A DNA stretch of 64,000 nt, taken from Hesseltinella vesiculosa (taxonomy: Eukaryota; Mucoromycota; Mucoromycetes; Mucorales; Cunninghamellaceae). Positions 23 to 64,000 of this stretch are shown here, in pieces. A program made the translations under genes and the position numbers. Below the pieces are notes generated by a model. It was not told the DNA's origin and did not search any database. It worked only from the letters and a program-made list of their open reading frames with translations. Numbering within the stretch: position 1 is the stretch's first letter; each line of letters starts with the position of its first letter. Location: contig MCGT01000056.1 of the NCBI GenBank assembly GCA_002104935.1, forward strand, positions 32,412 to 96,411, in the 5' to 3' direction.

Positions 23-451
23 CGAATAACGCAGTTGTTCAGGCTTCTTCGGATATGGAAGAAGGTCCTAGACGGTGCGGATATCCCAGTAGACACGGAG
101 CCTGATGCTGACGTCTTGAAGGTTCCTGTTAATCCGACTGCCACCCCGAAACCTGCAAGTATCCTCGCTAGAAACGCAACCTCCATGAAATCGACAAATG
201 AAGACGCCTCCTCTGCGTCCTCGAAGCGTAAATCGACAGTGACACCTCTGCGTAACGAACCATACACTAAGAGGTCTCTAAACTCAACCAAGGCAGCACT
301 ACAGATCTCCTCTGCATCGCCTACGGCACGCAAGAGATCCATTTTGGCCTCGCAGAGATCGGAACACAGTCGCCCAACAAAAGAAAATCAGCTGGACTTA
401 TCCCAGACTGATTTCCTCCCTTCAGACAACAAGTACCAGCAATATGAGTAA
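23..451 (+). pseudogene. LINE ORF1 remnant (3' part)
   Basis: An open frame running from an in-frame stop at 20-22 to TAA at 449-451. It has no ATG near its beginning; the first in-frame methionine is about 50 codons in. The peptide is rich in Ser, Thr, Pro, Lys and Arg, as in the disordered part of a LINE ORF1 nucleic-acid-binding protein, but no zinc knuckle is visible. Its stop overlaps the ORF2 start (ATGAGTAA, 444-451), an arrangement used by LINEs for re-initiation or coupled translation. I take it to be the end of ORF1 with its upstream part missing or frameshifted. Confidence 0.6.
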
Positions 452-3215
452 ACAAACTCATATCCGCATAGCCACGTGGAACACGCGTGGCCTCCTTAAA
501 CGCACAACAGCACCCGCCTCGTCCTCGACTGCCAAGCAAGTCTCCACCTTTATCCGTTCACAAGAACTCGCGGCTGATATTGTCTGCCTGCAAGAAATCA
601 AGCTGGCTTCAGCTAACAACCTATCTGAAGACCTCCTCCATCGTCTACACCTATCTTACCAACAATTCTCCCATTTCTTCACCAAACACGTTGGAATTGT
701 AATCCTCAACAAACATCTCGAAGTCCAAAACGCCTTCGTATCCCTGGACCAACGCATCATGGTCGTTAAAGTGTACCACAGACAAACACAGCAAAGCCTC
801 ACTGTCGTCAATGTCTATGGCCCCTCAGCTGCCCCCGGGGATGTTAAATGCCAATTCTTCGAGAACCTTTACTCACTACCTCCATTTGCAGATGGGTCTA
901 TCAACAATGACTCGATTGTCTGCGGTGACTTCAACCTACATCTTTATGACCCCAATCCTCCTAAATGGCAAAGACATTGGACACTACGCCTTCAAGCCCT
1001 TATGGTAGACTCTGCCCCACACGCAGGAGACGTTACTAGGGAGGCTGGAGGCTCCTCTTCCTGTATCGACTATCTCTTCGTGTCGAAAAACCTGGCGCAT
1101 CGCACCGCAAACCCTCGCAACTGGTCCCTCCCTTCGGCGTGGTCTGACCACCACCTGTTGGCCTGTGACATAGTCACCCCTCGCTCAGATATCGGTCGTG
1201 GCACCTGGCGTTTCAACACATTCCTTCTCCAAGACCCAGATTTGGCAGACCTGCTCATTACCTCGGTCAACCTACATCTTCAATCCCTCCCACCTAACCC
1301 TTCTCCGGAGGAAGTGATCTCTATCTGGGAAGACCTCAAGCGCATCATTCAGGCGGTGGCCAAGAACAGAGGTCCAACTCTGGCTAAACAACGACGGCGC
1401 CGTTGGGAACTCCTCCAAAAAGAAAGGAATGCGCGACCCAATCTGGAAAAGCCAGACCCTGAAGTCGATGAAAAAAAGTATGCCAGCTCAATATCCAGAC
1501 GCCAATCCTTACAAAGTCAGATCGATGAACACATCTCCCAGGACATGCAACGTCTAATTACCAGATCTGCCACCCGTTGGGCGGAAAAAGGTGAACGTAG
1601 CAACAAGTACTTCTTTAACACAATCAAGAGGAGAAACTCCGAGCAGACCATCCACAGCCTGAAGAACGCAGAGGGTTCCAAGGTTACGGGCACCTCCAGT
1701 ATACTGCAGCTAGCGCATTCATTCTACAGCAATCTCTATGCGGCAGAACCCGTGAATGAGATGGCCATTCGACAAATGGAAGAGGCTATCCCCAGCCAAA
1801 CTCGCCTCGATGACAATGAACGAGACCGTCTGCTATCAGCCCCCTCCCCCGAGGAGATCGGCATTCTACTGAAGAGATCTCCTCGCGACCGCAGCCCTGG
1901 TATGGATGGCATTCCCTTCGAGGTCTATACCTTCCTATTTTCGGCCTCGGCGGCTTTCCAGAACATCCTCACGTGCCTGATTGCGAACGCTTATGCCGGA
2001 TTTCTACCGCCAAGCTGGCAAGAAACGCGCATGATCTTACTTTTTAAGAAAAATGACCCAGAGGACCTACGGAACTGGCGCCCACTCTCTCTGATCAACT
2101 GTGATGCGAAACTCTTCACAAAATGGCTGGCCAACTCCCTAAGAGATATGCTGGGGAGAATCATCAATCCATTGCAGACAGGCTTTATGCCTGGTGCCCA
2201 AATGTCAGATAACGGCTTGATCCTACAAACATTCAGAGACCAGCAACGCGGCCTTCTTTCTACCCGTGGCGCTGAGCGACTAAGCCCTTGGGTGGCTGCA
2301 TGCCTAGACCAAGAAAAGGCATATGACAGGGTACACCCGGTATACTTTTACAGAATCCTAACTCGCTTTGGCTTCCCGTCCCCCCTGGTCAAAGTGCTAT
2401 CAACCCTGTTTTTCAAGACGAGCATCCATGTGTCCATCAATGGCTCATTGGGCTCTCCCTTCCAGCAAAACCGAGGCCTCCGACAGGGCGACCCTTTGTC
2501 TCCCCTCCTCTTCAATCTCATGATCGAACCCCTGCTGCGGTCTATTCAACAAACGCCCTCACTCAAAGGTTATAGCCCTTTCAGAGAAGGTCATCGTATA
2601 CCGCCCAATGCCCCTCCATCCAGCGTAAATGCCAAAACTATGGCATACGCTGATGATATGGTGGTTTTTTTAAGAGATCCCTCGGAGTGGGATATCCTCC
2701 AGAACTTGTACTCTGTATATGCTGCTGCCTCGAATGCCAGACTGAATATCCAGAAGACGGAGCTCATCTCCCTGTCAGGCCACCCTTGGCACCAATGGTC
2801 ACCTATCCGGCATATTACATCCGCGTCTTGGCATGACAAACATAGCCCTAATGTGGTCAAGTACCTGGGTTTTCCCATATACTGCTCCAAAGCTCAACTC
2901 CGTACATTTTGGGACAACTGTGCCATAAAGATTGACAGACAATGCCAGATCCTCCGGGAGCGTAAACTTTCCATTCGTGGTACCAGCCTCCTCTGCAATT
3001 CCGTCATCTTAGCCTCTCTGTGGCATACCCTCCGTATCACCCCGATCACGGAGGCAAATACCGGTATCCGCCCAATTGGGGCTAGTATACGCAAATTTGT
3101 GATGCCTTTCCATCCTGCTCCCTCATGGGTCACTGCTACTCGTCCCCGTATGCAAGGTGGTCTAGGCGTCATAGACATCAACTCCCAACAGTTGGCTCTA
3201 CAAATTCGTCTAGCC
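444..3215 (+). pseudogene. LINE ORF2 N-terminal part: endonuclease and reverse transcriptase
   Basis: About 924 codons of ORF2 before the LTR element interrupts it. The apurinic-like endonuclease (residues ~5-240) shows ATWNTRG, CLQEIK, CGDFNLHL and the terminal SDHHLL motif. The reverse transcriptase (~480-800) shows NWRPLSLIN, DQEKAYDRV, GLRQGDPLSPLLFNL and the catalytic YADD box near residue 735. Beyond 3215 the frame reads into the inserted LTR and stops at 3264-3266 after about 16 foreign residues. The product would lack the C-terminal zinc-binding region, which lies at 9305-10323. Target-primed reverse transcription needs both parts, so the copy cannot move on its own. Confidence 0.9.
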
Positions 3216-3390
3216 TGTGAACTTGAAGCCAATCAGCCGCCCTCACATAGCTTGTGCAACTACTGAGCCCCTGCCTGTAACACAATATTTATTAGTCACA
3301 GTCAGAGGACTCTGTTATGATTCCCTCTTCTTCCCCATCTGATTCTATAATCATATAAAAACCAACCACTTCGAATCTCGTATTCTTACA
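3216..3390 (+). repeat. 5' LTR of the Ty3/Gypsy element
   Basis: 175-bp direct repeat of 9130-9304. It starts TGTGAACTTGAAGCC and ends TATTCTTACA. The solo LTR at 59244-59396 has the same two ends in inverted orientation, which fixes the boundaries. An AATATTTATTAG segment and a TATAAAA-like stretch near its 3' end may carry promoter function. Confidence 0.92.
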
Positions 3391-3435
3391 TTTTTTTTTT
3401 ACGAATATTCACGAATCGACAACCCCGACATCAAG

Positions 3436-6400
3436 ATGAATAACAACAACTTTCAACCTGCCCGCATGGGAAGAGCCAACTCTCCCATCCCTGATGGTTT
3501 TGTGGAGGCCGACTTCCCGGCCATCCCCAGTAGCCCAACAATGGCTACTTCGTCCAGCGGCTCTACGAGAAGAGTACGCGCTCCCGAGGGAACTGAGGGC
3601 CGGCACGGTGTGGTGGGTACCACACCGGTACAAACAAAAAAGGCCCGGGGAACTGATGTCCTCGAGCAGAGTGACGCCTCCTCCACGGAGAGCAGCCCAA
3701 TCTCTGCCATGGCTCGGATTCCTTCCCCCGCTCTACCTTTCCAAGAGGTAGACGATGATGTCGTGATGAAGGAGGCACCCGCCCCACATACTCCCATCAT
3801 CGAGGTAGATGGTGACTTTGCCGAAGCCCTCGCTGCTGCTAGACAGGAGCTTGCGGCCAAAGGCAGACTCTACCTGACGATCAGTCAGAGTAGACCCACT
3901 GACCCAACCAGGCTTGCGGCAGTGAGGAATGATATCTTGAATATCAAGGACCATATCCAGGTACTGGAGACCGTTGTCGCCTGCTTGCGAACAGAGCCCA
4001 TACCTGAAGAAGCAAAATGCAAGAAGGAAAAAGACGTTCCTAGGAACAAACCTGTCATTCCAGCTGTATTACCGGCATTGCGCCTAATCGGCATGGATAC
4101 AGATGGTTCCCCTGATGACCAAAGCCAAAGCAAGTATAAGTCCATGGACGAATACTTCTATGCTTTACAAGGCAAGGCACAGCTCACTACTGAAGCATTG
4201 AACCAGAATTGGCAGAGCGTCCTCCAAATCTCACTTGACTATGACCAGTATACCAGTTTTATTGAGTTCGTCAAGAAGAAGAAAGGGAAGGGTACTAAGC
4301 TTTCCAACCTCTCATGGTCTAGAGTCAAGACCATGATGACTGATTGTTTCGGTTCTAAGCCGTCGATGAACAATCGCTTGTTGAAAGAGTATGAATCCAT
4401 GACGATCAGGCGTTCTGAATCTGTGGATGATTACCTGAAGCGTTGGCGTATCGCTGCTATTGCGGCAAAAAAGGACAAAGATCCCATGGCAGCCAAAGCG
4501 TTCATCGAGTCCACCAAGACAAATCGGGCCCTTTACAGAGCGTTGCATCTAAAAACAGCCGAGTTAGCTGATTCAGCGAAAGGAGCTCCCACCTTGACAG
4601 AAGTCACGAAAGTGGTGGACGCCATTAGTGCCGCCTGGAATTATGACAAACTGTATGGTAGCCATGAACCAGAGCGTCACGGTACCGCTTCCAGTCAGAA
4701 AAAATCACTGAACAAGAAGCAGTTGAGCAGGCATAGTGCTAAACGCCGTCGGGACGAACCCAGACCGGAAGATCTATGTGATCGTCACGGCAACAATCGG
4801 GTCGCCCATACCAAGTCGGAATGCTGGAGCAACAACGATTCAGCGAGCAAACGGTACAAGCATGGCAAAGATACGAGACCTGAGACTTCGTTCAGCGCTC
4901 GCAATCGACCATCGCCTAAGCAGCCGTATAGCTTCGCCAAGAAGCCCTCGCAGAACCCCCACGCCAGACGATACATCGTAGACAGTCGGGCCATGGAGGC
5001 GCAATGCACACTTTGCGGTTGTCACTTCCGGGACAAGTATACACTTCGTTCCCACCTCAAGCTTTCCGGTCATAACATGCCCAGAGCATCGTCGGACAAG
5101 AAACCCAATTATAGGGACGCCTTGCCAAGTGACGATGAAGAACCAATGGAAACAGATTCCAAAGGTAAAAAGCATGATGCACCGATATTCTTCAGAATGT
5201 CAAGTGTAAAAAAACAAAAAAGAAAAACAAAAAGGGAGCAAGCGCCGATGTCTGAAAATATATTTTTTCCCATTACCATACAGGGCATTGAGACAATGGC
5301 ACTTTTGGACACTGGAGCCACACATAGCTCCATTAGCCCAATCTTTTGCTCCCGTAATAAAATCAAAATTTACGAAGCTGAAGGGCTCGTCCATCTCGCT
5401 GTTGAAGGTCTTGTTTCCAAGAGACTAGGGACTACAGAAAGGTTATGCGTCAAAACCGACACCACCGAGGTTCATTGCGTTTTTGAGGTCATGGACATGC
5501 CTCAAGGCACAATAATCACCATCGGCATGGATGTAATGTCTGACCTTGGTATAGCAATCACTGGTCTACCCAGATGGCACGCTTCCTACAACGCAGACGA
5601 AATAAGAAAACGCATTACACCAGTTGAAGAGGACGTGATCCACCCAGTGGCTAATGACTCACCAGTGGGAAGCTCGCATGAAAGGACAAGAATGATGGCT
5701 ACCATTGAACCTTTCATGGCAAGAAATCAAGCCATACCGAAGGGCACGTTTTGCAACGTACCAGAGTCGGTTGTTCATCTCGACACTGAGCCAGGCAAAA
5801 CGGCATACAAGCGCCAGTACACAGTACCTTGGGCTTTATCCTCACGGATGGAAAAATTCATTCAGGACGGTCTCGACGATCTTGTCATTCAAGAAATGAC
5901 ACAAGTGGACACCGCATGGAATTCACCTATTACCTTTGCGCCAAAAAAAGACGCACAAGGCAACAAGACAGACATGCGCCCTTGTTTAGATCCTCGACAC
6001 ATCAACCGTCTATTGCCTGATGATCGGTTTCCATTACCCATCATCGACGACATTTTCGAGCAGCTGAGAGATGCCTCTATATTCTCCACGCTAGATCTCA
6101 AAAGCGCATTTAATCGCTTCAAGATTTATGAGCCGCACCAACATAAGACCGCTTTTACATATCAGAACAAGCAGTACAAGTTTGTTGGATGCCCTTTTGG
6201 CTTAAAATCTATCTCAAGCAAATTTCAGAGGGTCATGTCGATCTTGCTCCATAAGCACAAAGATTTTGTACTCAATTTCGTAGACGACATTATCATTTAT
6301 TCTCGGAATTTGGATGAACATACAAAACACATCTGCACGGTCATAGACATACTGACCAATGCAAACCTGATCTTGAACGCAAGCAAATGTCATTTTGCGC

Positions 6401-8823
6401 AGGCCTCGGTCACACTCCTTGGATTCCAAGTTTCCAAACAGGGTGTCCGAATAGACCAAAACAAGCTTGTCAATCTCGATGAGTGGCCTATCCCTCGATC
6501 AGAGAAAGCGGTTCGTAGCTTCCTAGGTTTCGCCAACTACTTCCGTAAGTTCGTGCCTTCGATGTCTGCCCTGACCAGTCCACTTGATGACCTTCGCAAC
6601 TGCAAGGACGTACCGGGTAACTGGACGCCCAAGCATACGGAATGCTTCAAAGAAATTAAGGCTCGGCTACTACGCAAACCCATACTCGCTTACCCTAACT
6701 TCCAGTGGCCCTTCAAGGTAGCCACGGATGCGTCACAACACGGCCTCGGTGCAGTATTGTACCAACAGGACCCCGTGGATACAACTGTCGTTCACTACAT
6801 TAGTTTCATGGCCAGGTCGCTATCGAAATCTGAACGCAACTATTCTGCCACAAAGAGAGAGCTATTAGCTATTGTCTTTGCTCTCAGACGCTTCCATCAT
6901 TACCTATGGGGTAACCACTTCACTCTCTACTCTGATCATCGAGCCTTGTCGTACCTTCATACGCAAGAGGAGATCAACCCTATGATGAGCAACTGGTTAG
7001 AGACCATTTTGGACTACAACTTTGACATTGTGCACATCCCTGGTCACGTTAACGTGTTACCGGACCACCTATCACGCTTCTTCCTCACGAGCCAACAGCC
7101 GGAGGGGGGTAATAAGCGTAGCAACCGCACAGAAGATGTTGAAACAAAGCCAGGGTCACAAACCACAAAAAAGCACAAAACTCAGAAGTGCAGCAAAAAA
7201 GAAAAAGAAAAAAGCGAAAAAGTAGAACCTCAAACAATCCTAAGCCGCTCTTGGCACGTGCACCCTGATATGACTCCCATGGATCTCGACACCTTCGAAC
7301 CCACTGAGGATCTCGCACAGGACCACCCAGAATACAATGCAGCAACGGACATCAAATCCAGAGCATCACACATCAGAAATCTGGAAAATGAGAGTTACTA
7401 CATACCACCGCTTAGCGAAAGAAAGAAAATACTTGCCACTCAACACTTGGCCGGACATTTCGGAGCTGATTCCATGGTACGAGCCATTCGCAAAAGGCTA
7501 GGTATCGACTGGCCAAAGATCCGAGAGGATGCAGTCAGAACCACTCAAGCCTGCGACAAGTGTATGAAGCATAATATCGTGCGCCACGGGTATCATCCGC
7601 TCAAATCCATTGAAGCTAAATGGCCAGGCGACCACTACGCAATTGACCTAGCGGGACCATTCCCCACGTCGCATAGCGATAACCATTACCTATTCGTGCT
7701 CATAGACATCCACAGCAAATATGTCATCTTGGAAGCAATTCCAGATAAAACATCACCCACGATCGCTAAAGTGCTGCTGAAGATATTTCTCACACGTGGC
7801 TTTCCAAAGGTACTGCAATCGGATAATGGCACTGAATTTGTAAATTCACTGGTAAAGCTGCTGACATCCTCATGCAAAGTGGATCACCGCCTGATTACCC
7901 CGTATCATCCACGAGCAAATGGAGCTGCTGAAAGGGCTGTACAGACCATTACACGCATGCTAGCTAAACTCGTAGACAGTCAGTTGAAAGACTGGGATGA
8001 ACACGTTGATGCAGTTGCATTCTTTTATAATACGCAACCTAATAGCACAACAGACTCAGCACCACACGATTTATTTCACGGCTGGAGGCAAAATAGCTTA
8101 ATTGATTATCGCAAAGACCATGAGGACTCTGTTGAGCACAACATTCCTACAGGTAACTACGATCAAGAGCATATCCAAGACCGAATCCGAGAGCTGCAAA
8201 TCGTTCACGATGCAGTGAATGAAAAAGTAAGCCAAAGAAGAAAGGTCGTGAAAGCAGCCTACGACAAGAAACACAAGATGATAGAATTCTCGACTGGGAC
8301 GCTAGTCGCTATCGAAGACCCTCTCTTGACACGCAAACTGGAGCCTAGGTACCATGGCCCATATCGAGTCGTGATCGTTACAGAAGGAGGTTCCTATGTG
8401 TTGGAGGACACCATCACAGGTGAAAGATTGCCAGAGAGGTTCGCGCCCTCGCAACTAAAACCAGTATCGGATGATCCTATATTCAAAGACGCAGAAGACG
8501 AAGATAACGAGCAACGCTACGTCGTAGAAAAAATAGTCGACCATCGCGGAGAAGTAGGGAAGAGGCAATACCTGGTAAAGTGGAAAGGATACCCTTTTGA
8601 CGAAGCCACATGGGAGCCCTCGAACAGCTTCGACGACACCGCACTAATTGATCGCTATTGGAGACGTCTCGAACGCGAAGCCATAGCCGCCGATAAGCCC
8701 AAAACCTCTGTTGTACCTACCGGTAACGTCAATAGACAAAAAAAGGATAACAAGTTAATGCGCAAGGGACACAGGCAAAGTCAACGTCAAAACACTGGAC
8801 AAAGAAGATCCACACGCCAATGA
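3436..8823 (+). CDS. Gag-Pol polyprotein of the Ty3/Gypsy element, with chromodomain
   Basis: One 1795-aa frame with no stop between gag and pol. Residues ~230-420 form a capsid-like region. A C2H2 finger (CTLCGCHF...HLKLSGH, ~524-546) sits where many elements have CCHC knuckles. Then follow protease (LLDTGATHSS, ~624), reverse transcriptase (STLDLKSAF ~885; FVDDIIIYS ~947, an F variant of YVDD), RNase H (VATDASQHGLGAVL, ~1094), integrase with an HHCC zinc site (~1336-1375), and the D,D,E core (AIDLAGPF ~1402, SDNGTEF ~1462, ANGAAERA ~1498). A chromodomain (YLVKWKGYPFDEATWEP, ~1710-1730) would tether integration to modified chromatin. The first ATG lies 46 bp after the LTR. All catalytic motifs are intact, so it may still be active. 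Confidence 0.95.
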   Translation: MNNNNFQPARMGRANSPIPDGFVEADFPAIPSSPTMATSSSGSTRRVRAPEGTEGRHGVVGTTPVQTKKARGTDVLEQSDASSTESSPISAMARIPSPALPFQEVDDDVVMKEAPAPHTPIIEVDGDFAEALAAARQELAAKGRLYLTISQSRPTDPTRLAAVRNDILNIKDHIQVLETVVACLRTEPIPEEAKCKKEKDVPRNKPVIPAVLPALRLIGMDTDGSPDDQSQSKYKSMDEYFYALQGKAQLTTEALNQNWQSVLQISLDYDQYTSFIEFVKKKKGKGTKLSNLSWSRVKTMMTDCFGSKPSMNNRLLKEYESMTIRRSESVDDYLKRWRIAAIAAKKDKDPMAAKAFIESTKTNRALYRALHLKTAELADSAKGAPTLTEVTKVVDAISAAWNYDKLYGSHEPERHGTASSQKKSLNKKQLSRHSAKRRRDEPRPEDLCDRHGNNRVAHTKSECWSNNDSASKRYKHGKDTRPETSFSARNRPSPKQPYSFAKKPSQNPHARRYIVDSRAMEAQCTLCGCHFRDKYTLRSHLKLSGHNMPRASSDKKPNYRDALPSDDEEPMETDSKGKKHDAPIFFRMSSVKKQKRKTKREQAPMSENIFFPITIQGIETMALLDTGATHSSISPIFCSRNKIKIYEAEGLVHLAVEGLVSKRLGTTERLCVKTDTTEVHCVFEVMDMPQGTIITIGMDVMSDLGIAITGLPRWHASYNADEIRKRITPVEEDVIHPVANDSPVGSSHERTRMMATIEPFMARNQAIPKGTFCNVPESVVHLDTEPGKTAYKRQYTVPWALSSRMEKFIQDGLDDLVIQEMTQVDTAWNSPITFAPKKDAQGNKTDMRPCLDPRHINRLLPDDRFPLPIIDDIFEQLRDASIFSTLDLKSAFNRFKIYEPHQHKTAFTYQNKQYKFVGCPFGLKSISSKFQRVMSILLHKHKDFVLNFVDDIIIYSRNLDEHTKHICTVIDILTNANLILNASKCHFAQASVTLLGFQVSKQGVRIDQNKLVNLDEWPIPRSEKAVRSFLGFANYFRKFVPSMSALTSPLDDLRNCKDVPGNWTPKHTECFKEIKARLLRKPILAYPNFQWPFKVATDASQHGLGAVLYQQDPVDTTVVHYISFMARSLSKSERNYSATKRELLAIVFALRRFHHYLWGNHFTLYSDHRALSYLHTQEEINPMMSNWLETILDYNFDIVHIPGHVNVLPDHLSRFFLTSQQPEGGNKRSNRTEDVETKPGSQTTKKHKTQKCSKKEKEKSEKVEPQTILSRSWHVHPDMTPMDLDTFEPTEDLAQDHPEYNAATDIKSRASHIRNLENESYYIPPLSERKKILATQHLAGHFGADSMVRAIRKRLGIDWPKIREDAVRTTQACDKCMKHNIVRHGYHPLKSIEAKWPGDHYAIDLAGPFPTSHSDNHYLFVLIDIHSKYVILEAIPDKTSPTIAKVLLKIFLTRGFPKVLQSDNGTEFVNSLVKLLTSSCKVDHRLITPYHPRANGAAERAVQTITRMLAKLVDSQLKDWDEHVDAVAFFYNTQPNSTTDSAPHDLFHGWRQNSLIDYRKDHEDSVEHNIPTGNYDQEHIQDRIRELQIVHDAVNEKVSQRRKVVKAAYDKKHKMIEFSTGTLVAIEDPLLTRKLEPRYHGPYRVVIVTEGGSYVLEDTITGERLPERFAPSQLKPVSDDPIFKDAEDEDNEQRYVVEKIVDHRGEVGKRQYLVKWKGYPFDEATWEPSNSFDDTALIDRYWRRLEREAIAADKPKTSVVPTGNVNRQKKDNKLMRKGHRQSQRQNTGQRRSTRQ

Positions 8824-25893: not shown

Positions 25894-26161
25894 AGAAAAA
25901 ATAAAAAGAGGGAAAAAGAATGAAGAAAAAGAAAGGGAAAGAGAAAGAGAAAAAGCAATAGACAGGGGAAAAGCGATCGACACTACAGAAAAAAATCCAA
26001 TGTTAGTAGCCAATCAGGCGCTTGAATTATTTTCATCTAAACTTACTTTATTCATTTTCATGACAAACCTGCCAATAAAAAAAATCAGCATTTCCTCTTC
26101 ACATTCTGCCTCAGGCTTACGTAAATAAGCTGGTTTATTGGCCAGCGAGGTAAGGTATTCA
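25894..26161 (-). other. 3' flank of the Fanzor gene: candidate guide-RNA region
   Basis: On the minus strand this directly follows the Fanzor stop codon. In studied Fanzor and TnpB loci the guide (omega) RNA overlaps the 3' end of the gene and ends at the element boundary. Here the first ~100 bases contain CCTTACCTCGCTGGCCAA and ACCAGCTTATTTACGTAAGC, which can form short stems. No boundary or terminal repeat is obvious by eye. Confidence 0.3.
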
Positions 26162-29100
26162 TTAGTTAGGGTCCCGAGACGAAGAAGCAACTGCTGAATT
26201 TTGTTGGTGTGGTGATGATTGGTCGGTGGAGGTGGATGGTGGTGGGCAGAACAACGCTGGGCGAGGCAATCCTTGGAGGGCAGTCTTACCAAGACGCAAC
26301 ATATTCCAAGCCGCAAGCTTGTCCCTGTCCCAGTTGATTTTACAGTGTTGGCACTGTAGAACCGACCACAAAGGCATGCTTGCACCTCGCAGGAATGGGT
26401 CACCGACGGTCTTGTGTTCAAGGTCTTTTTCATCACACATTGGACAGACCTGTAAAAAAAAATGAGATAGAAAAAAAAGGTCATTTTGCGCTTCATTTTT
26501 CCCTCTCCTCATGATTTACCTTGCTTGTGTTGTATTCATTTGTTTTTGTAACAAGAAGTAACCCTTGCTTTTCCGCTATTTTGAGTGCTTTGTACACTTT
26601 TCCGGAGCGAGTGGACTTTTTCCCTCTACGGGTTTGCGCAAACAATGCACCACCATAGGCAATCACTGGAAGTTTGCGGCTATAAAAAAAGTTAGTCCAG
26701 GCATCACACCTTTTTTTGTGTAGTGCATACCTATCATAGTCATCCTTCTGGTGTTTGTACTTGTTACCGCCATGGACGAAGTGGTTAACGACTTCTGCGC
26801 ACATCTTCTTGTCCCCACAATAGTCCAGGAACCGATGCAGGGTATAGTCGTCAGCAAAATGTTCGGTGATGTCATCAAGGTGTTGGAATACGTAGATGGT
26901 GCGCTGAATGAAGCGATCAGGATGACTAGTTTTTGCTGGTGGTATACGCGTGAGGATCTCCTCCATGCCAGAATCTTTGAGCCAACGTTTTCGAATGCAT
27001 GAGCGCCCATGTCGACCAGAGAGTGATAGCCATTCATTATTCGAGAATCGCATGTACCGACCATGCCAACCGTTGGTGCTGTTGCTGCTGTGTTCAGTGC
27101 CTGGGGCAGTGCGATCATTCCCCGGGAGGTACTTGACTTCTTGAGCAGATGTGTAAAGCTCACTATGTCCTGGATCGACTCCATACAGCTGCATACGTTC
27201 TTGTGGTTCATCATGCAAGTCGTCCATTTCGAGATCGGGAAGTTCAATTTGGGGTGCGCGCTTGCCATAAATAAATTCCAATTGAAGCCCATCAGTGCGA
27301 ACACGATTGGAAAATACCAAGGAGGCAGGATCATCATCTTCCTCTTCATCGCTATCGCTACTATTGATTTCAGTCAATTGAGTATCGCTGTCATCGTCCA
27401 GGCGTGTTGTCTCGTCAGTAAATCTGCCTTGATCTTGATCACCATCGTCGATTTCGCCCTCCGATGGGGTATTGTGAGCACCATCAGAACCGCCAGCAGG
27501 GTTGCCGATGTCATTAGCCTCTCCATCAGTAACACTGCCACTATCATCTTCGGCATCACCGTTGTCAACATCGGGATCAGCACCACCAGCGTCATCATCA
27601 CTGTCGCTGTCAGTTTCAGTGAGCGTTGGATAATGCAAAAATGCGGCAGTACTAAAAAAAAATCAGTCACGATTCCTGCCATCACAATGTTCCTCAGTTA
27701 CCATTTTCGAAGACGAGCCTTCTGAAAGTCCAGGTAGGTGAAAAAGAGAGTGGCATCGCGAGCAAGGCGAATATAAGGATGAGAATGGTCACCCGACGGC
27801 ACAGTCACGTTTATACCGGCTTGCTTGAGAATTGACCGAAATGAGTAGGCATCCAAAGTGATAAACCGGCGACGAAAGGCCAGAGTCGGCACAAGGGAAA
27901 AGAGGGCTGTTGACTTGGATTGCCTCATGGTGGAGGAGGAGAAGCAAAGGTCTGCTGATATGTCAGTGCCAGCCAGTTTCGCCTTGGAGTTTGCCAACTT
28001 TACACGAAGGCCAAGGACGAGATCTGACAGCCAGGTCTTAAATTCTTCCGGTAGACTCCAGGGGATGTCAATTGGATTGTATGGGTGCTCCAGCAATTGC
28101 ATCATGCCCTTGAATACTCTTTGGCGACAGCGACGAGGCAGCACCTGATAGTCCATGTTAGATGATAGTAAGAGCTTCATGGTGATTGTGTCCATTTGAT
28201 CATGCACATCGTCATGCCCCATCTCAGATGGTTCCAGGTCGTTGCTTTGTTCCATTTCTTGCAATAGTCGGTAAAGTACTTGCAAATATGTTCCGGGGCT
28301 TGCAGTAAGTTCCTTCAGCGTAACTGGACTTGGACCAAAGTTCAGGGTTGAGATAAATGTTGATACGATCGTTCGCAAGAGATCAGGGCTATTTTCTGAC
28401 AGTGGCTCAACTTTTTCTTGACGGGTGACAGTGTCGTAAATACTCTGGCATGCGTTCATAATATAACCGGACTTTGGCATTTCCTATGTCAAAAAAAAGT
28501 GAGCAACTCGCGCCTTCTTATTTTCTCTCTCTTTCTTACTGACCTGGCCGTCAGACAGCTGATCCTTGAGGGTGTTGACCAAGCGAAAGCGAATATACTT
28601 GATACACTTTTCTTCAAAACGTTCAGTCACAGCCAAGAGATTGATTTGGGCTAACTCATCCGCCATTTCAGAAATCATGTTACTAGCACCCTTGATCCAA
28701 TATAATTCGAAGCGGCAGTCACCCAAGAGAGACTGGTAATGGTGATAAATTGCTGTAGGATCAGGTATGTTCGAGTTGGGGGAGGTCACAGCCTTGCCAG
28801 TCACCAGTTGGCAGATCCCATAGAAAAAATCTTTACAGAATACAGTATCGTTGACCACAGAACCCTCAGACATGACATGAAGTACATAATAGTTGAAGAA
28901 CGACTGGGCGCAGATGGAGACATAGCGGATGTGATCGACCCATAGGAGGATGGTTTCTTGGACGTCCATCTTTGCTTGGCGTTGGTCTTGGATATTGTCT
29001 TGGGTCATGTTAAGAGCATGACAAAGAGATATCTTGCGAACACGGGTTTTGAAATTGGTACCAAGCAAGAGAGACTGGAGATCCTTCAACTTGAATTTCT

Positions 29101-29493
29101 TGGCCCTTTTTTTCCCATCAGGGTTCTTCTGCTTTTCCTTGCGGGCCATGGAGCCAGCCTTACGTAGAAGCTTTCTGGCCCTTTTGAGCTGGGTTTTGGA
29201 CTTTCGTTTGCCACCTTTAAAAGTAAATGTTAGAAACTGGCAATGTAGGGGCTATCAATACTAACGGTTGAAAGGACAATCTGCTCGCTTGTGCCCTAAT
29301 CCATGGCACAATGTACACTTTAAACCTAATGGAAGAGAATGAGATCATGAAGCAACGCGTTTTAAAAAATAAACCAACAAGGTCAATAATAGGATTTACC
29401 TTTGAGAATGTAGTATTTCCTCATTTTCAAGTTATACAGCCAAGTCTTATTTGCATCTATTCGTAATTGCCTTCTTCTTATATGACGCCCCAT
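26162..29493 (-). CDS. Fanzor-like (TnpB-related) RNA-guided nuclease, seven exons, apparently intact
   Basis: Exons 29400-29493, 29266-29325, 28544-29214, 27702-28483, 26731-27651, 26520-26679 and 26162-26449 join in frame to 991 aa. Exon 2 encodes a CCHC knuckle (CTLCHGLGHKRADC, residues ~34-47), and residues ~545-645 are strongly acidic. The RuvC site is complete: motif I LYGVDPGHS (D~695), the Fanzor/TnpB-type TNEYNTSK (E~891), a zinc site (C898, C901, C929, C932) and motif III WDRDKLAAWNM (D~939). Fanzors are eukaryotic TnpB relatives shown to cut DNA with a guide RNA encoded at the element's 3' end. All introns are 50-85 bp GT-AG; the one between exons 5 and 6 keeps the frame open if retained. 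No stop or frameshift was found. Assignment to the Fanzor family is strong; activity is inference. Confidence 0.85.
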
Positions 29494-30136
29494 TTTAAAT
29501 GTAAATAAATGCTGAAGCAAGGTTGTAAAAAAAAAGTAAAGAATGAAAAAGAACTCTTTGAACGCGCAGCACCCTTTTCAATAAACCCCGCTCGTTGTTT
29601 TTCTTGCCTCTGACACCCTCTCTCTCTCAACTTTTGTCGAGTCTTTTGTCGACAAAAAAAAACCTTGTCAGCACAACTGGCCATGCTTTTTTGACCTTGC
29701 TACAATTTTTATTACCTTTAACACTGTCCTCCTCCCACGCGTGATATCCATCTACAAGGAATAAGTGGGGCATGATACTTTCAGATCACGAGATGAAAAG
29801 TCAAACGACGAATATCCAGTTTGGTAACTTGAAAAGGCTTGAAGTGGAAAGTATTCATTTTTGTATTGATAATAAATATAACCCATTGAATGCGAACTTA
29901 AAAGGAAAAGTACATGCAGCAACTCTCACTTTTTCTTTTCTCCATTCACGTCGCCTTCATGAACCAGTGCTAATCTTCATGGTATTTTTGTACCTCGTTT
30001 CGTTGGTTTAATCGCGCTTCCTCACTTTAGTATTATCAATATTAAACCGTTTTTAATTGGCTCACCATTTCGCATTTCCCGTGAAGCGAGAAAAAGCTGG
30101 CATTCGAAAAATTTTCGCACTTTTTGTTTCTAAAAA
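29494..30136. other. Intergenic between the Fanzor gene and PNP
   Basis: AT-rich with runs of A and a CT-microsatellite-like stretch near 29610-29635. An open frame at 29772-30011 shows no family signature. It probably holds two divergent promoters and the left end of the Fanzor element, which I cannot place. Confidence 0.4.
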
Positions 30137-49189: not shown

Positions 49190-49767
49190 AATAAAATTTT
49201 TACACTATCTCCTTACATGAGTTAAGACCGCCATCGTTTCGAGATTTGCCGACTCTCACCAATTGCTTTTAGTAGGTAAACCATGCAATAGTTCATGAGC
49301 AGGCACAAAAGGACCTCAAGGACCTTTTCCAAAAAAAAAAAAAAACGACGTCATACCCATGCCACTATTTAATCTAAGAGCATAGTCGAAAACGTCTGTG
49401 TCATTGAAACAGGGATTTACACATCAAAGTGATCCGGTAGGTTCAATAAGCGCAGAAGTAGCAGAAGAGATTTGCTCTGTTCATACACTTTATTTAGAAA
49501 AGAAGTCTTAAGGTCAAAAAATACAACGTCGCAAATGAAACTACGAATATGGAAAAAATGGGATGCGTTTAGTATAAACCGGCGAATGGCACAGCAAATT
49601 GGGCTTACAATAAACCCAAGCATGGAAAACAGGCAAGCATGAAAAAAAAAATGAGCAAGAGATATTTCCCTAAAAGGTCGCTTCGAATACTGTTTTCACC
49701 GCTTATGCGAGAGCCGCCGGCTCACACTCCAGAGCATGACCATTGTTTGAAAAAAATTTTTGCCTAG
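49190..49767. other. 3' flank of the rhomboid and second-type Fanzor relic
   Basis: The Fanzor relic ends at 49768 on the minus strand. About 35-60 bp past its stop (plus 49708-49733) is a GC-rich palindrome, AGCCGCCGGCT, inside AT-rich DNA. This is the position where a Fanzor guide RNA scaffold would be expected. Nothing else recognised. Confidence 0.35.
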
Positions 49768-52700
49768 TCAAAATACTGGATCGTTTGTCATTAAGCCATA
49801 CGCTCGCAGAGCAATGCAAGTGGCGGAGATGGTGTCGCGGCCAAAGGAATTTCGACATTCTTTGACAGACGGGCATGCGGGGTAGATGCAACAGCTTGTT
49901 CCTAAACCGGTCTTGGTTTTGTTGGAGACCTTCTTGCGAGGATGAATGACACGTTGAAGGCAGTACGGACATGTCATGGACGTGCGGTTTTAATTCGTGA
50001 CGACAACAGCCGAATGCTGGCGTGCTAATCGTCGATGCCATATCCCTCCCAATCTCCAGTGGCCCTTGATTCGCAATCCAGCACTTGTGCCCGCATTGCC
50101 GATTGCCTGGATCAAACTTTTCTGCTTTCCGATTTCCTGCTTTACTTGCTTTACTGCCAGGACGGCGGCTGTCTTCACGGTCTTGGCCCGCCATGCAATC
50201 GTTCGCCGTTGCCTGTTGTATTTCATTTGGTTGTAGAAATCACGAACAGTTGGGTATTGTCCACGGTTTTTAGTAAACCGTTCCTGGAAAGTTTGCAAAT
50301 CACAAGCGGTTTTGAGGCTGTTACCGGAGATAATTTTCTCAGCCCGTTGTGCAGATTGGCCGTTTGCGGTCTACAGAAAAAAAAAAAGTCGGCTGGCATC
50401 AGTCATCGATCGTACGAATAATCTCCCGTCGGTCTTGTCATGCCTTTGCCTTGTCATGCTTCAGTCTTTTGCTGAATTGCCAGCTGCCAATCTTCCATGA
50501 CAGGTCGCGTGCAGTGATCTTGGTGGGTTTACGAAGCTTGACAAAATGGCCAACATTGACGGATTGCAGTTCAGGTACAGAATGAGCCACAGTTGTTGCC
50601 AGCGTGACAACGCCACAATCAATGCCAGAAATCATCAAATCGCGTGTGCTCATTGTCAAGGAGACATTGCGGGAGTCTTCTTCTACTGTGCCTGTTTTCT
50701 GCAACTGTATAGGTGGGATGCCAGGTGCCTTGCCCTTCTCTTTTGCTTGCCTTTCTTTTTCGAACCAGCTTCGTCTGCCTATAAAAAAACAGAAGAGCCA
50801 ATGAGTCATATTCTATTTATTCCCTGCCATTGTCTTCGATAGCACTAACCTTCTGGAGAGCAAATCTGATAGTGCGCATTTCGGCTAGCTGGTCTTGCAC
50901 GGCATGGGCATCTTGAGTTGATTTCTGGGCTGCTCTTTTTAATGAGTGTTCAGCTTTCATGTTCATGTACTTTTGGCTGGTTGGTGTATCTGTCGGTAAA
51001 AAAAAGTGCCCAGGTGAGTAAATCAGAGTGATTTATTGTGTTTGAATACCTTCTTGATGGCTACTGGATGCAAGGTGGACCAGCAATACTCCGCGTTGTT
51101 CTGACTGTCCAACCGGGAGAGGGTTTGGTGGAAGCTGAGACATGGGGGGCTGTGCAGTGTTGGCAGTCTTCATCACTTGGCGATGTTTTGCCAATGCATT
51201 CGTGGCCTCGCGCTTGATTTTAGCCAAACGGTCGCGTTCTTTTTTAGCATTGGTTATATCGACCTTCAAGGTGTCCAGAGTATGATGTGTGGGCGGAGGT
51301 TGAAAGCTGCCATGGCTTTGCTTCAATCGCTTTTCATAGACGGAAGTTTGTCGTGGTTTGTTGGTAAATCCTTGCAAAGACACGTCGTTGGCAGCATTGA
51401 TGTCTACCCGGTGGATGAATGTAATGCCATTCTTTTTACAGTTAGCGTGGATCACCGGCATGTCAAACAGGCATGAGAAGACCTGCTCCTTGTGATGACG
51501 GGCTTCCATAGCGGATGGGATGGCATGGTCGCGCTTGATACCAAGAGCTTTGCTGAACAGTTCGAAAATAGTAGCCGCATCGAGAGACAGAGAATAAAGA
51601 GATCCGGCGGATACGGTTGAGCAGTATTGCATGGTGAAATCAACATAACCGCAAAATCGTAGCAGGTGATTTCCCCAAAAGAGAAAGTTGACTCGACAAT
51701 AGCTAGGATTTTCTGATATGACGAATGGCTTGATGTGTTTGTATAGGAGCTTTAGAACACAACATTCATGCTGCGATAAGTCCAGGCTTTTGCTATATCG
51801 CGTCAGTACATCATCGGTTAAAGTGTTGGTCACTTCAGTCATAATAATTCTGGTCAACAAGCCTTGGAGCGATCCAAGTCTTCGAGCTGAAATGTCACCA
51901 TGGGTGAGGGTCAATGCGGCGTCATCCAATTCATAACTGGTTGCATCAAGATGGTCAGCCACAGCCAATTCCTCCAATACCTCTTGTTCACCAGCGTCCT
52001 TGAAGAAAAAAAGTGAGTTTTTGTTAATTGGTGATATGCGGCCCTACCTCATTGACCTTTTGCTGGGAAGATCCTTTTTTGGACTGATCAGGAACGGTAG
52101 TGCTTTCCTAAAAGAAAAAATAAAATCAGCAAAGATATGTTGAAGAAAGACGTGCGAAATACCTTGAGCTGGATTCTTTGACCATCCTCTTCCTTGAGTC
52201 CTTCGCGCTCCTTCTTCAACATGTCCTAAATAGAACGATAGTCAGTCGATATTAAAATAAGACGCCAATATACACTTACAACCACACCGCGTAGATAATC
52301 AATTCGGGCATGATATTTTTGACGTTGGTGGTCACTGAGCTTGTTCATGGAGTCCTTTTTGTTCAGCTCCCATTGTTGTTTTCGCATGGCGTTTCTGGCA
52401 TTGTTCCATTGACCCTTCAATTGCTTGCTCTTAGATTGTTTGTCAGCCTGTTTTTCAAAAAAAAAAAAAAAAAAAGTGAGTCTACTAGTCCATGGTGGCG
52501 AAATTTAACCTCTGGAGCATTACCTCGCGCTTCGCCGTTTTTAGCTTTGAGAAATTGGCCTTGGCTGCGTGGTACCTCTGTTCCCGAGTTGGTGCAAGGT
52601 GAAGACGGAGGAGGAGACGAATGACGTAGCGGAGCATCTTTTTGAAGGATGGGCCATTGAACAGGTTCTTCAAGTCGGTTTCAAGCTTGTTATTGTATAT

Positions 52701-53031
52701 GGCTTGAAGGCTGGTGGTCACCAGTGGGTTTATTGGGCCTGGCGTCCAGTCATCATCTAGGGAGGTCCAAACAAGATTGTTCGTGTTAGATTGCTGACGA
52801 CGACCGTAGTGACAGGACTTGAGGTGCTGGATGTGGCGCAGATCAAAAAGCTTGCTTGCGAGAGGTTTATCAGGAGGAGGAAGCCCTGGGAGATAGCCAT
52901 CGTTCAGTATGGTATTTTCACGCCAAGCAAAAGATGGTACAAGATCTATGGCTTTGGTGGGAAGCGGGACGGCTGAGGAGAAGTAAAAAAATCACCTGAA
53001 CACGATACCCTTCTGCTTTTTTTTTTTCATG
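49768..53031 (-). pseudogene. Second-type Fanzor-like nuclease gene, decayed and 5'-truncated
   Basis: Homologous to the gene at 60415-64000 with the same intron layout; exons lie at 52524-52972, 52280-52447, 52163-52225, 52048-52107, 51050-51998, 50850-50989, 50444-50778 and 49768-50370. RuvC-I (MISGIDCGVVTLAT) and the end part (CPYC, CPSVKEC, then RNSFGRDTISAT with the RuvC-III Asp) are present. Defects: the first exon and its donor are missing; the frame slips by one base near 50735; the 50444 donor is GC (AAAG/GCATGA); and TAA at 49990-49992 replaces the predicted RuvC-II glutamate codon (paralogue TNEARTSM, here TN-stop-NRTSM). The part at 52645-53031 is nearly identical to the other copy, while the rest is much more diverged. 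Confidence 0.82.
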
Positions 53032-60253: not shown

Positions 60254-60414
60254 TGCCGGTGGATATGACGGCATCTGCCTCAGCGGCGATTGGGTCCAGG
60301 TCACCTGCGGTTACAATCCTTTGTTGGATCTGTCTCGGACGTTCAAATAAAAAATAGACAGGTCGCGTTTTTTTTATCTTTCCCACTCTCAACTTTTTTT
60401 TATTGTCGTTCATC

Positions 60415-63400
60415 ATGGGTAGAAAGCGTGCGGCACAAAACGATGGCACGAAGTCTAACAAGAAGCCTTTATTGATACTTGATAACGAGAATGCTGCAAA
60501 GAATGCTTTGGTTGCTGAATTCGAACTGTACGTCAAGCGGCGGCTGTTGGACACAAAGCCTGAGAAGCTCAAGACTGAGCTGATGTCCAAGACCAAGGTT
60601 CCACGTGGCATCGTTGCTTCCATTGAACAGCAATGCAATTGGAATGCAGGCAGCTTCGGCAGCAAATTCCGAAGCCTGAAAAACATTGACGTTTGGCATG
60701 AGTTCATTCGCACCTCCTTTAATAATTTGGCCAGTCAAGTCCCCGCCGAAGTGTCCTCTACTTCCGAGAAGCCCTCCTCCTCCACTGTCGGCGTAGCCTC
60801 TTCATCCTCAAAGCCCTCGTCTCTGAGGAAAGAGGAAATTCGTAGTTGCCATAAGTCCCTTACTTCGATCTTGATGCCACTCATCAGAAACGACAATGAC
60901 TTGCAATCAACCATCTTTGCTACCATCAAGAACACTATGCAAGCAGTCACTCAATATTCCCAGGACATGGCTGCATTGGTACAAGCATCCATCATAAAAT
61001 TCGTTACGACACCGGAAGCAGACTGGTACAGCTGTAAGTCATGAAAAAAAAAAGCAGAAGGGTATCGTGTTCAGGTGATTTTTTTACTTCTCCTCAGCCG
61101 TCCCGCTTCCCACCAAAGCCATAGATCTTGTGCCATCTTTTGCTTGGCGTGAAAATACCATACTGAACGATGGCTATCTCCCAGGGCTTCCTCCTCCTGA
61201 TAAACCTCTCGCAAGCAAGCTTTTTGATCTGCGCCACATCCAGCACCTCAAGTCCTGTCACTACGGTCGTCTTCAGCAATCCAACGCGAACAATCTTGTT
61301 TGGACCTCCCTAGATGATGACTGGACGCCAGGCACAATAAGCCCACTGGTGACCACCAGCCTTCAAGCCATATACAATAACAAGCTTGAAACCGACTTGA
61401 AGAATCTGTTCAATGGCCCATCCTTCAAAAAAATGGTTCGCTACGTCCTGCGGCTCCTCCTCCGTCTCCACCTTGCTCCCCTCCGCGAACAACGATACCA
61501 TGCAGCCAAGGCTAAGGCAGCTAATGAAAAGGCTAAGAAAATAGAGGTAGTGCGACGCTACACTATTTGTATTTCCCAGATTTTGAAATGCTCACTTGTT
61601 TTTCTTTGGAAAAAAAAAAGGCTGTCTATCAATCCAAACAGAAGCAACTGAAAAGCAAATGGAATGGCGTCCGAAACGCTCTGCGACGTCAACAATGGGA
61701 GCTTCAGAAGAAGACTGAAAAGATCAAGCTCAGCGACCACCAACGTCAAGGCTACGAGGCTCGGATTGGACACCTAACGAAAGTCCTTGTAAGTTCATTG
61801 GCAGGCTAGTACACGTTCAGCTTTAACACACGGTTTTTTTTTTTTTGTAGGGTTCGCTGAAAGAAGATCGTGAACGCTTAAAGAGAGAAGACTGTGATGA
61901 ACAAGCAGAAAAGGTATCTTTCCACAATGTTTCCTAATATGTTTACTGAATCTTCTCTGTCTCTGCTTCTCCTTGTAGGATACCAGCTCCAGTTCCAAGA
62001 CAAGCTCTGGCTTTGCGGCAGAAGAAGCATCTCACAATGATGTCCCGGACAACGAGGTATGGCTACTTTCCCACCAAAGTGTATGATGTCTCATTTTTTT
62101 CTTTTAGGGTGATGATGTGAAAGAAGAGCTTGATGAAATGGCTGTGCATGACGACCTGAATTCGACCGGATATGAGTTGGATGAAATTGTTACAGACAAG
62201 AGCAATGATGATATCTCAGCACGACGGCTTGGCACATTGCAAGGTATCCTGACACGCATGATCTACAATGAAAACGTGTCTAGCTTGACAGAGGACGTGA
62301 TGAAGTCCTACACCAAGAAACTAGACCTTTCTGACAAGGAATCACAAGCCCTGAAGCTCATTTACAGCAACATCAAGCCGTTCATTATCTCTGTAGACCA
62401 GCCCAAGTACTGCCGAGTGAACCTACTGTTTTTTGGCAACGCCTTGCTTCGGCTCTGTGGATACCACCAATTCTGCATGCGCTATGCCCCAGCTGTGTCC
62501 ACCGGTTCGCTCTACGCTCTATCCATTGATGCCGCCGTTATCTACGAATTATTTGGCAAGCCCTTGGATATGAAGCGCAGTCAAGGTATTACGTCTGCCA
62601 ACGAAGCGCGCCGGCGAAAAGATCAAGTATTTGGCTGCCTTTTCGACATGTCTGCCATCAACTCCATCTGCCAAAAAAATGGTATTGAATTTATGCACAG
62701 GATGGACATTAGCCCTGCAAACGATGCGTCCATGCAAGGTCAAACAGTGAAGCCAAGGCAAATCTCCCTCTACGCACAGCGATTGAAGCAAGAACAGTCC
62801 AACCCCGTGCCTCCATCCACTCCACACTCACTTGACACTCTGATGACCAATATTGCTGAGAAGGAAAAAGAACGAGATCGACTCTCCAGAACCAAGCGGG
62901 ACTGCAGCAATGCCTTGATGAAGCATCGGCAATCGATGAAGAACAATGGTAATTCCAAAGAGTGAAAAGATATGTAGTCTCATCTGTACCTCTCATTTTT
63001 TTTATTTTTTATTCACTAGACCCTGCTGCACAAAAATTCGACGATGTGAAGGTCGAACGTACATTGAAGAACAGCCTCCAGCAAGCAACACGAGATGTGC
63101 ACAGTGTACAGGACGGTCTGGCAAACTTGCGGTCCACCCGCTATACTCTTCAAAAGGTATGCGTTTTGGTGGGGAGTTGGTTAGGAGCAGGACGAACGTG
63201 ACCCGATTGTTTTTTTTCCAAAGGCTGAGGAAGAACAAGCAAAGAAAGGAAAGAAGAAATCCAAGGACAAGGAATCGCCCCTCCCTCCCACTGAACTCAA
63301 GAAAACCACACGTGTGGAGGAAGATCCTCGGCACACCATCTTGAAAATCGATACCAATGACCTCCTGATTTCTGGAACTGACTATGGTGTTGTTACTCTC

Positions 63401-64000
63401 GCCACCACCGTGACCCATTCGGTTTCTGATCTGGAAGCAATCAAGGCTGGCCAGATGGTGAGACTTGGCAAGCCCACTTTGATCACTGCTCGAGACATAT
63501 CATGGAAGACTGGTCAACACCAGTTCAACAAGAAAATGAAACATGACAAAGCCAAGGTATACAACCTCTTTCACCTCGCTGGCGTGTGACCAAGCTCAAC
63601 TGTTGTTTTTTTTTGTAGTCCCCCAGTGGCCAAGCTGCACAACAGGCTGAGACTATCGTTGCCGAGAACATCCTCTCAACTGCTTTTAACCTAGAAACAT
63701 TCCAAGATCGATATGACCGGATCCGAGAACAGACCCAGCCATCCGTGCCTTTTACCACCAGCCCAAGTTTGAACGAAGGCGCCGCCTTATTGCTTGGCGA
63801 ACCAAGCTTGTCAAAACCAAGATCGTGGTCGAGAAGAAACGTCAACACCCTCAAAAAACTCTGATACAAGCTATCGGCCATGCAGGGACAGGAACTGGTA
63901 CTCGTATAAGGGGCATTTGCGATTAAGTGGAAAGTGGCATCGACAATTCACCCGGCAGCATTCCATCGCTCTAATCACCAACGAAGCACGGACCAGCATG
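60415..64000 (+). pseudogene. Second-type Fanzor-like nuclease gene, frameshifted near its 3' end, cut by the window
   Basis: Exons 60415-61033, 61098-61546, 61621-61788, 61851-61913, 61979-62056, 62108-62948, 63020-63156, 63224-63556 and 63619 onward, all GT-AG and in phase. The product starts MGRKRAAQNDG, exceeds 1000 residues and is rich in Lys and helical linkers. RuvC-I is LLISGTDYGVVTLAT (D~838). The last exon leads to GHAGTGTGTRIRG, then TNEARTSM with the predicted RuvC-II Glu at 63983-63985, just before the zinc finger that lies outside the window. Two single-base losses, near 63748 (paralogue PTVRDFYNQ, here PSV then a frame change to FYHQPKF) and near 63912 (TRIRG then HLRLSGKW), break the frame. 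They may be real decay or base-calling errors. Intron positions equal those of the relic at 49768-53031. Confidence 0.8.

What the first reader, a model, noticed from the sequence alone, without database searches (positions are those of the whole stretch)
26162..29493. Intact seven-exon Fanzor-like nuclease with a complete RuvC and zinc site
Splicing by eye yields one uninterrupted 991-codon frame with GVDPG (RuvC-I), TNEYNTSK (acidic residue before the zinc finger), C-x2-C...C-x2-C and DRDKLAAWNM (RuvC-III). Fanzors are the eukaryotic TnpB relatives shown to be RNA-guided nucleases. Together with the lack of decay, unlike the second-type copies in the window, this makes it a candidate active or domesticated system.
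Basis: partly seen in the sequence, partly recalled or inferred. Interest (0 to 1): 0.88.

Follow-up and report, generated by a model that had tools for sequence, protein, structure and literature searches.

The report
Multicopy Fanzor-bearing mobile element
A eukaryotic, probably fungal, chromosome carries a seven-exon gene for a Fanzor-type DNA cutter that sits in a mobile DNA element with many near-identical copies, and the scars these copies left give a testable clue to what such cutters do.

Summary
In detail: splicing six introns on the minus strand of 26162-29493 gives one open frame of 991 codons. It encodes a Fanzor-type nuclease with DPG, the alternative glutamate six residues before the zinc finger, four cysteines and RuvC-III. 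PF07282 scores above its cut-off. A two-sequence profile ranks SpuFz1 first in the PDB, weakly (E 0.08).

"Domesticated" is not supported. The genome holds at least 17 copies (mean pairwise divergence 2.6%), 5 fully open. The element spans 25979-30087. Changes shared between copies show constraint (omega 0.40); by region it is 0.32 in RuvC/zinc finger and absent in the acidic insert.

Insertion signature: the 3' end is exact in 15 of 15 readable copies. TCTC directly precedes the insertion in 14 of 15 copies with a recognisable 5' end; L014, truncated by 274 nt, does not fit. Target duplications are 0-5 bp in most copies and 10 and 12 bp where the 5' end is shortened. Chlamydomonas CRe-1 Fanzor1 elements behave alike after TTTT. 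TCTC is therefore my predicted TAM. No guide RNA, mobilising enzyme, empty site or activity was shown.

The parts
25979..30087 (-). whole mobile element (4.1 kb); 5' end at 30087, 3' end at 25979
   Evidence: boundaries from comparison of 17 copies with different flanks
26162..29493 (-). seven-exon Fanzor-type nuclease gene, 991 codons
   Evidence: PF07282 33.1 bits vs cut-off 26.3
29400..29493 (-). exon 1
29266..29325 (-). exon 2, N-terminal zinc-knuckle-like motif C35-x2-C38-x4-H43-x4-C48
   Evidence: the four residues are the same in the 33%-identical C12 paralogue and in 17 of 17 copies; named by eye, Pfam zf-C2H2_10 below cut-off
28544..29214 (-). exon 3
27702..28483 (-). exon 4
26731..27651 (-). 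exon 5: acidic insert (no purifying selection) then RuvC-I, GVDPG with D695 at 27176-27174
26520..26679 (-). exon 6 with alternative RuvC-II glutamate E891 at 26537-26535
26162..26449 (-). exon 7: zinc finger C898/C901/C929/C932 and RuvC-III D939 at 26323-26321
25979..26161 (-). 3' non-coding end of the element, exact 3' terminus ...CTGTAGTGTC; place where a Fanzor guide RNA would be expected (not shown)
   Evidence: 15 of 15 readable 3' ends end in GTGTC; the last 212 nt fold no better than shuffles
29494..30087 (-). 5' non-coding region of the element, ragged 5' end
30088..30091 (-). TCTC target tetranucleotide directly 5' of the insertion (predicted TAM)
   Evidence: 14 of 15 copies with a recognisable 5' end; not in L014

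Best explanation
A non-autonomous transposon whose only recognised gene is an intact Fanzor-type nuclease (Fanzor1-like by best match). SHOWN: intact gene with a full active site; at least 17 recent copies; constraint on the nuclease core during spread; exact 3' end; insertion directly 3' of TCTC; target duplications of 10 and 12 bp in two copies with a shortened 5' end and 0-5 bp in the others. INFERRED: a trans-acting enzyme inserts the element with a fixed 3' end. The Fanzor binds an RNA from the element's 3' end whose tail is the right-flank sequence, recognises TCTC (its TAM) plus that sequence in the empty site or allele, cuts it, and repair from the element-bearing copy restores or multiplies the element. 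This retention role would explain why the nuclease is kept under selection.
For: Gene and motifs (weakly 64). Copies. Selection: omega 0.54 for all distinct changes (binomial p 7e-8), 0.40 for changes shared by 2 or more copies (p 6e-7), 0.32 in RuvC/ZF, 1.56 in the acidic insert. TCTC at 14 of 15 left junctions with a recognisable 5' end, background 36 of 14183 positions. Right-flank matches anchored after TCTC sum to 13 over 14 copies, shuffled mean 5.3, 0 of 2000 shuffles reach it. Duplications of 12 bp (L013) and 10 bp (L007 left with L012 right). A like rule is in print for CRe-1 Fanzor1 elements (PMC3627910 section 8).
Against: No transcript or guide RNA seen; the 3' 212 nt fold no better than shuffles (z -0.23), and the 3' non-coding part changes as much as the introns (0.137 vs 0.135 distinct changes per site). 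L014, truncated by 274 nt, has neither TCTC nor a duplication at its left end. The 5-bp match of L003 comes with an unshortened 5' end, and most other anchored matches are 0 or 1 base, within chance one by one. Older relatives lack TCTC. No empty site found for the 10 copies searched. No mobilising enzyme with the same ends found. Sequence alone cannot tell a transposition enzyme's target preference from a Fanzor TAM.
Confidence: 0.5

Rival explanations
1. A Helitron-like (rolling-circle) non-autonomous element in which the Fanzor is a passenger; TCTC is the target preference of the Rep-helicase and has nothing to do with the nuclease.
For: Insertion rule like that of CRe-1, which shares ends with Helitrons. 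One Helitron_like_N match over cut-off in the genome.
Against: Helitron2 marks not met: the best exact inverted repeat between the ends is 7 bp (641 of 2000 shuffles reach that) and the ends fold no better than shuffles to any clear degree. The one Helitron match is partial, and the part of its surroundings that could be read shows no match to the element. A pure passenger would not explain omega 0.40 in shared changes.
Confidence: 0.28
2. CACTA/EnSpm-type cut-and-paste element with ends CAC(C/T)AC...GTAGTG and a 3-bp duplication TCN.
For: Terminal CAC...GTG and 7 Transposase_21 matches in the genome; a junction scan gave z about 2.5 for the N position.
Against: Duplications of 10 and 12 bp begin after TCTC or CCTC. 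A motif scan of the three transposase loci fetched, of seven, shows no end like this one. The first bases of the 5' end vary between copies.
Confidence: 0.12
3. Ordinary decaying repeat: the window copy is intact only because the family is young.
For: 10 of 17 copies are broken; singletons show weaker constraint (omega 0.65).
Against: Shared (older) changes show stronger constraint (omega 0.40), and the constraint is concentrated in the N-terminal and RuvC/ZF parts.
Confidence: 0.08
4. A domesticated host gene kept at this locus.
For: Intact frame; the element ends 49 bp upstream of the start codon of a gene read by eye as a purine nucleoside phosphorylase.
Against: At least 17 copies with element boundaries; four other copies are as intact.
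Confidence: 0.02

Closest known systems
CRe-1/2/3 Fanzor1 elements of Chlamydomonas (PMC3627910, section 8)
   Same: multi-exon Fanzor1 as cargo; insertion after a preferred tetranucleotide; 3' ends kept, 5' ends often shortened; variable duplications mainly in shortened copies
   Different: TCTC instead of TTTT; no shared ends with a Helitron found; no terminal hairpin seen; here only two shortened copies show long duplications and one (L014) does not
MCi-2 Fanzor1 family of Mucor circinelloides (PMC3627910, section 12)
   Same: multicopy Fanzor1 element, fuzzy 5' ends, near-identical 3' parts, transposition class unknown
   Different: duplications there are 11-12 bp with the pattern ATAATTNNNN(N); not seen here
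SpuFz1 of Spizellomyces punctatus (PDB 8GKH; PMC10432273)
   Same: best PDB match to the two-sequence profile, collinear over RuvC and zinc finger, same alternative-glutamate context
   Different: 991 aa against 633 aa (the length PMC3627910 gives for SPu-1-1p), six introns, N-terminal zinc-knuckle-like motif, acidic insert; the match is weak (E 0.082)
MuDR-type Fanzor1 elements ROr-4, PBl-3, MCi-4 (PMC3627910, section 12)
   Same: fungal Fanzor1 elements without their own transposase
   Different: those have MuDR-like terminal repeats and 9-bp duplications; no 9-bp duplication here, terminal repeats not compared

Membership tests
Fanzor (eukaryotic TnpB relative) | DPG motif at RuvC-I | tested here: met
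   GVDPG, D695, in 16 of 17 copies, deleted in L018; feature as given in PMC10711439, passages read
Fanzor (eukaryotic TnpB relative) | alternative RuvC-II glutamate six residues before the zinc finger | tested here: met
   E891-x6-C898; also in the C12 paralogue and E891 in 17 of 17 copies
Fanzor (eukaryotic TnpB relative) | C-x2-C...C-x2-C, then D within 4-8 residues | tested here: met
   C898/C901/C929/C932, then six residues to D939. The DPG-to-E and inter-knuckle spacings exceed those of the TnpB search pattern in PMC10711439
Fanzor (eukaryotic TnpB relative) | sequence similarity to Fanzor/TnpB models | tested here: met
   PF07282 33.1 bits, cut-off 26.3; SpuFz1 first of 177635 PDB sequences but E 0.082. 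Against: NCBIfam none, single-sequence PDB search none, no relative in the protein collection
Fanzor (eukaryotic TnpB relative) | bound RNA with a guide from the 3' flank and RNA-guided cleavage | not testable with these tools
   needs RNP purification and cleavage assays
Fanzor1 versus Fanzor2 | placement in the Fanzor1 branch | tested here: inconclusive
   the closest PDB match is a Fanzor1 and the protein is large, but no tree was built
Helitron2 | asymmetric terminal inverted repeats and terminal hairpins | tested here: not met
   7-bp match reached by 641 of 2000 shuffles; three end pieces fold at z 0.17, -0.61 and -1.21
CACTA/EnSpm | constant duplication of about 3 bp (recalled) | tested here: not met
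   duplications of 10 and 12 bp
MuDR Fanzor1 elements | 9-bp duplications | tested here: not met
   no 9-bp match among the 14 same-copy pairs; MuDR terminal repeats not compared

The most novel reading that the evidence does not exclude
The insertion rule (after one fixed tetranucleotide, exact 3' end, long duplications with shortened 5' ends) is the footprint of the Fanzor nuclease itself rather than of a Helitron. Two separate Fanzor families, algal (TTTT) and this one (TCTC), share it although only the algal one is known to have Helitron ends. The Fanzor would then take part in copying the element into TAM-marked sites.
Probability: 0.1. Interest if true: 0.8.

Novelty: new member of a known kind. 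Interest (0 to 1): 0.5.

Why it matters
What Fanzor nucleases do for the elements that carry them is open. Here a young family with intact copies, measured constraint on the nuclease and a predicted 4-nt TAM read from natural junctions gives a concrete, cheap prediction to test. It may also be a second case, outside the alga Chlamydomonas, of an insertion rule whose authors could not say whether the Fanzor1 protein causes it (PMC3627910, section 8).

Tried and rejected
First thought CACTA/EnSpm with 3-bp TCN duplications (z about 2.5, with one flank mis-cut by me); set lower when duplications anchored after TCTC fitted better. Guide-RNA structure at the 3' end: no signal, no Rfam family over its threshold. 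No synonymous change in the last codons looked like an overlapping RNA, but the tail has many amino-acid changes and few synonymous sites, so dropped. The last 90 nt of the element vary little (0.94% against 2.91% in the distal 5' part), which I do not count as proof of an RNA. Empty sites: flanks of 10 of 17 copies searched in the own genome, no spanning match; the right flank of L004 belongs to another repeat. Helitron locus on C9: no match to the element in the part that could be read. KDZ family: uninformative, no control rang. Insertion near gene starts: no bias with a crude ORF measure, 13 flanks away against 15 toward. Relatives in the protein, viral and prokaryote collections: none (the last two used two peptide patterns each). 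Structure prediction was not run: the tool takes unspliced translations and no deep alignment was on hand.

Full report
OBSERVATION. The reading frame is real. A sign that the splicing is right is that the same frame and most splice sites recur in other copies.

IDENTITY. Pfam gives one match over its cut-off, PF07282 Cas12f1-like_TNB (33.1 bits, cut-off 26.3, residues 878-946). NCBIfam gives none and a single-sequence PDB search gives none. A profile of this protein and its 33%-identical C12 paralogue (hand-spliced) puts SpuFz1 (8GKH) first of 177635 PDB sequences, collinear across RuvC and zinc finger, but only at E 0.082; the next three matches are at E 7.6. The features that PMC10711439 gives for Fanzors (passages read) are there: DPG, glutamate six residues before the zinc finger, two C-x2-C pairs, and D after six residues. 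D695, E891, the four cysteines and D939 are the same in both paralogues and in the copies: 17 of 17 for each residue except D695, which is deleted in L018. A CCHC motif (C35, C38, H43, C48) near the N-terminus is kept too. No relative was found in the protein collection (where only the 7993 candidates sharing most words were scored, 1495 candidates), in viral contigs or in prokaryote genomes. I do not take this to show that the family is rare.

A MOBILE FAMILY. The own genome (27.05 Mb, 85 contigs) holds 19 matching places that make 17 distinct copies, the others at 96-98% identity to the window; the tool says such counts are lower bounds. Mean pairwise divergence is 2.59%, and the closest pair differs by 0.59%. 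Flanks differ on both sides, which fixes the element at 25979-30087, 4.1 kb; I recognised no other gene in it. Five of 17 copies are fully open (L001, L002, L003, L005, L006). L010 is open but has lost its intron-1 donor, L004 has a 1-nt deletion in exon 7, and the other ten are broken.

SELECTION. Changes were counted once per site and allele and compared with the mutation spectrum of the element's own non-coding parts. All: 133 synonymous, 185 amino-acid, 6 stop, omega 0.54. Shared by two or more copies: 58 and 61, omega 0.40. Singletons: 75 synonymous, 124 amino-acid, 6 stop, omega 0.65. By region: first 110 residues 0.27, REC 0.57, acidic insert 1.56, RuvC/ZF 0.32, tail 3.8 (10 changes). 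So the nuclease core was kept while the element multiplied. Copies share ancestry and this is not a codon model, so the p-values are guides only.

INSERTION RULE. The 3' end is ...GTGTC in 15 of 15 copies where it can be read; L010 is truncated and L015 meets a contig end. At the left, 15 of 17 copies have a recognisable 5' end; L011 meets a contig end and L014 lacks the first 274 nt. In 14 of these 15 TCTC directly precedes the element or its duplication, 0-4 bases before the conserved CACRGG block in the copies that keep that block. L013 has CCTC there and TCTC three bases further left. L014 shows neither TCTC nor a duplication, which is against the rule unless it is a later deletion. The frequency of TCTC in the left flanks is 36 of 14183 positions. 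Matches of the right flank to the bases after TCTC sum to 13 over 14 copies; shuffled pairs average 5.3 and 0 of 2000 reach 13. Eight of the 13 come from L003 (5) and L006 (3); five copies score 1 and seven score 0. The long duplications are GTGACACAAAAA (12 bp) in L013 and AAACTTATGA (10 bp) shared by the left of L007 and the right of L012; L013 and L007 both have altered, shortened 5' ends. I read the L007/L012 pair as an exchange between two copies; an assembly join is not excluded. L003 (ACAGC) has the usual spacing, so it is not clearly shortened. In L003, L007 and L013 the motif lies outside the duplication, so it belongs to the target. Older relatives (L040, L042, L050, L065, L066) do not show TCTC there, so the rule is that of the young family.

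COMPARISON. PMC3627910 section 8 (read whole) describes CRe-1/2/3, Fanzor1 elements that insert after TTTT, have no duplication when the 5' end is complete and variable ones (about 7 to 19 bp, some longer) in most others, with 3' ends kept. Its authors could not say whether the Fanzor1 protein causes the difference from plain Helitrons. The present family resembles this with another tetranucleotide, on far fewer copies. It lacks the Helitron2 marks, and no Helitron with the same ends was found by the searches made. Section 12 describes MCi-2, a Fanzor1 family with fuzzy 5' ends in Mucor.

MECHANISM. In studied Fanzors the sequence beyond the 3' end of the RNA acts as guide (PMC10432273, passages); that the TAM lies on the 5' side of the target, next to the element's left end, is recalled and in part from a figure legend seen. 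TCTC stands where such a TAM would stand, so I predict it to be the TAM. That step, the guide RNA and the retention role are inference. The 3' end shows no structure beyond chance and no clear extra constraint.

LITERATURE. Only the open-licence library was searched. Fanzor with CACTA: 0 papers. Fanzor with EnSpm: 2 records, 1 listed, an algal preprint not read. Fanzor with purifying selection: 1, a piggyBac preprint not read.

VERDICT. A real, intact Fanzor-type gene, ordinary in kind, in a young and informative family. Its value lies in the testable TAM prediction and in the resemblance of its insertion rule to CRe-1.

Noticed in passing
L051/L052 with L053-L056 (contig C12, two copies): A second, 33%-identical Fanzor-like family in an 8.2-kb repeat that seems to hold two Fanzor-like genes in tandem, each with a zinc-knuckle-like motif near its N-terminus (the second gene by eye).
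   Followed up: partly
window 49703-52991 (-) and 60358-63563 (+): The 'second-type' copies read by eye as another TnpB/Fanzor-like family; near 49990 one reads VTN, stop, NRTSMTCPYC, a stop at or next to where the alternative glutamate would lie. No Pfam match over cut-off in the pieces scanned.
   Followed up: partly
L062/L068 (contig C12): A third, very different TnpB-type zinc-ribbon gene end (PF07282 just below cut-off) whose element shares a 3' end with the deleted relative L063 and, in part (ATTGGCTRCTAAC), with the present family.
   Followed up: partly
own genome: 46 places match PF07282 at E 1e-3 or better, most over the cut-off, and the present family is not among those listed: the genome is rich in Fanzor/TnpB-like genes.
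   Followed up: no
L040, L042, L065, L066: Older relatives of the 5' end have GGCTG just before it instead of TCTC, possibly an older target motif or end.
   Followed up: no
L007 left and L012 right flanks: Two copies on different contigs share one 10-bp target duplication, as after an exchange between them.
   Followed up: partly
window 282-3266 and 3343-8823 (+): Long open frames that read by eye as a non-LTR retrotransposon and a Ty3-type retrotransposon with a chromodomain-like end.
   Followed up: no
L004 right flank: This copy lies at the end of another repeat that occurs at many places, often as inverted pairs about 1 kb apart.
   Followed up: no
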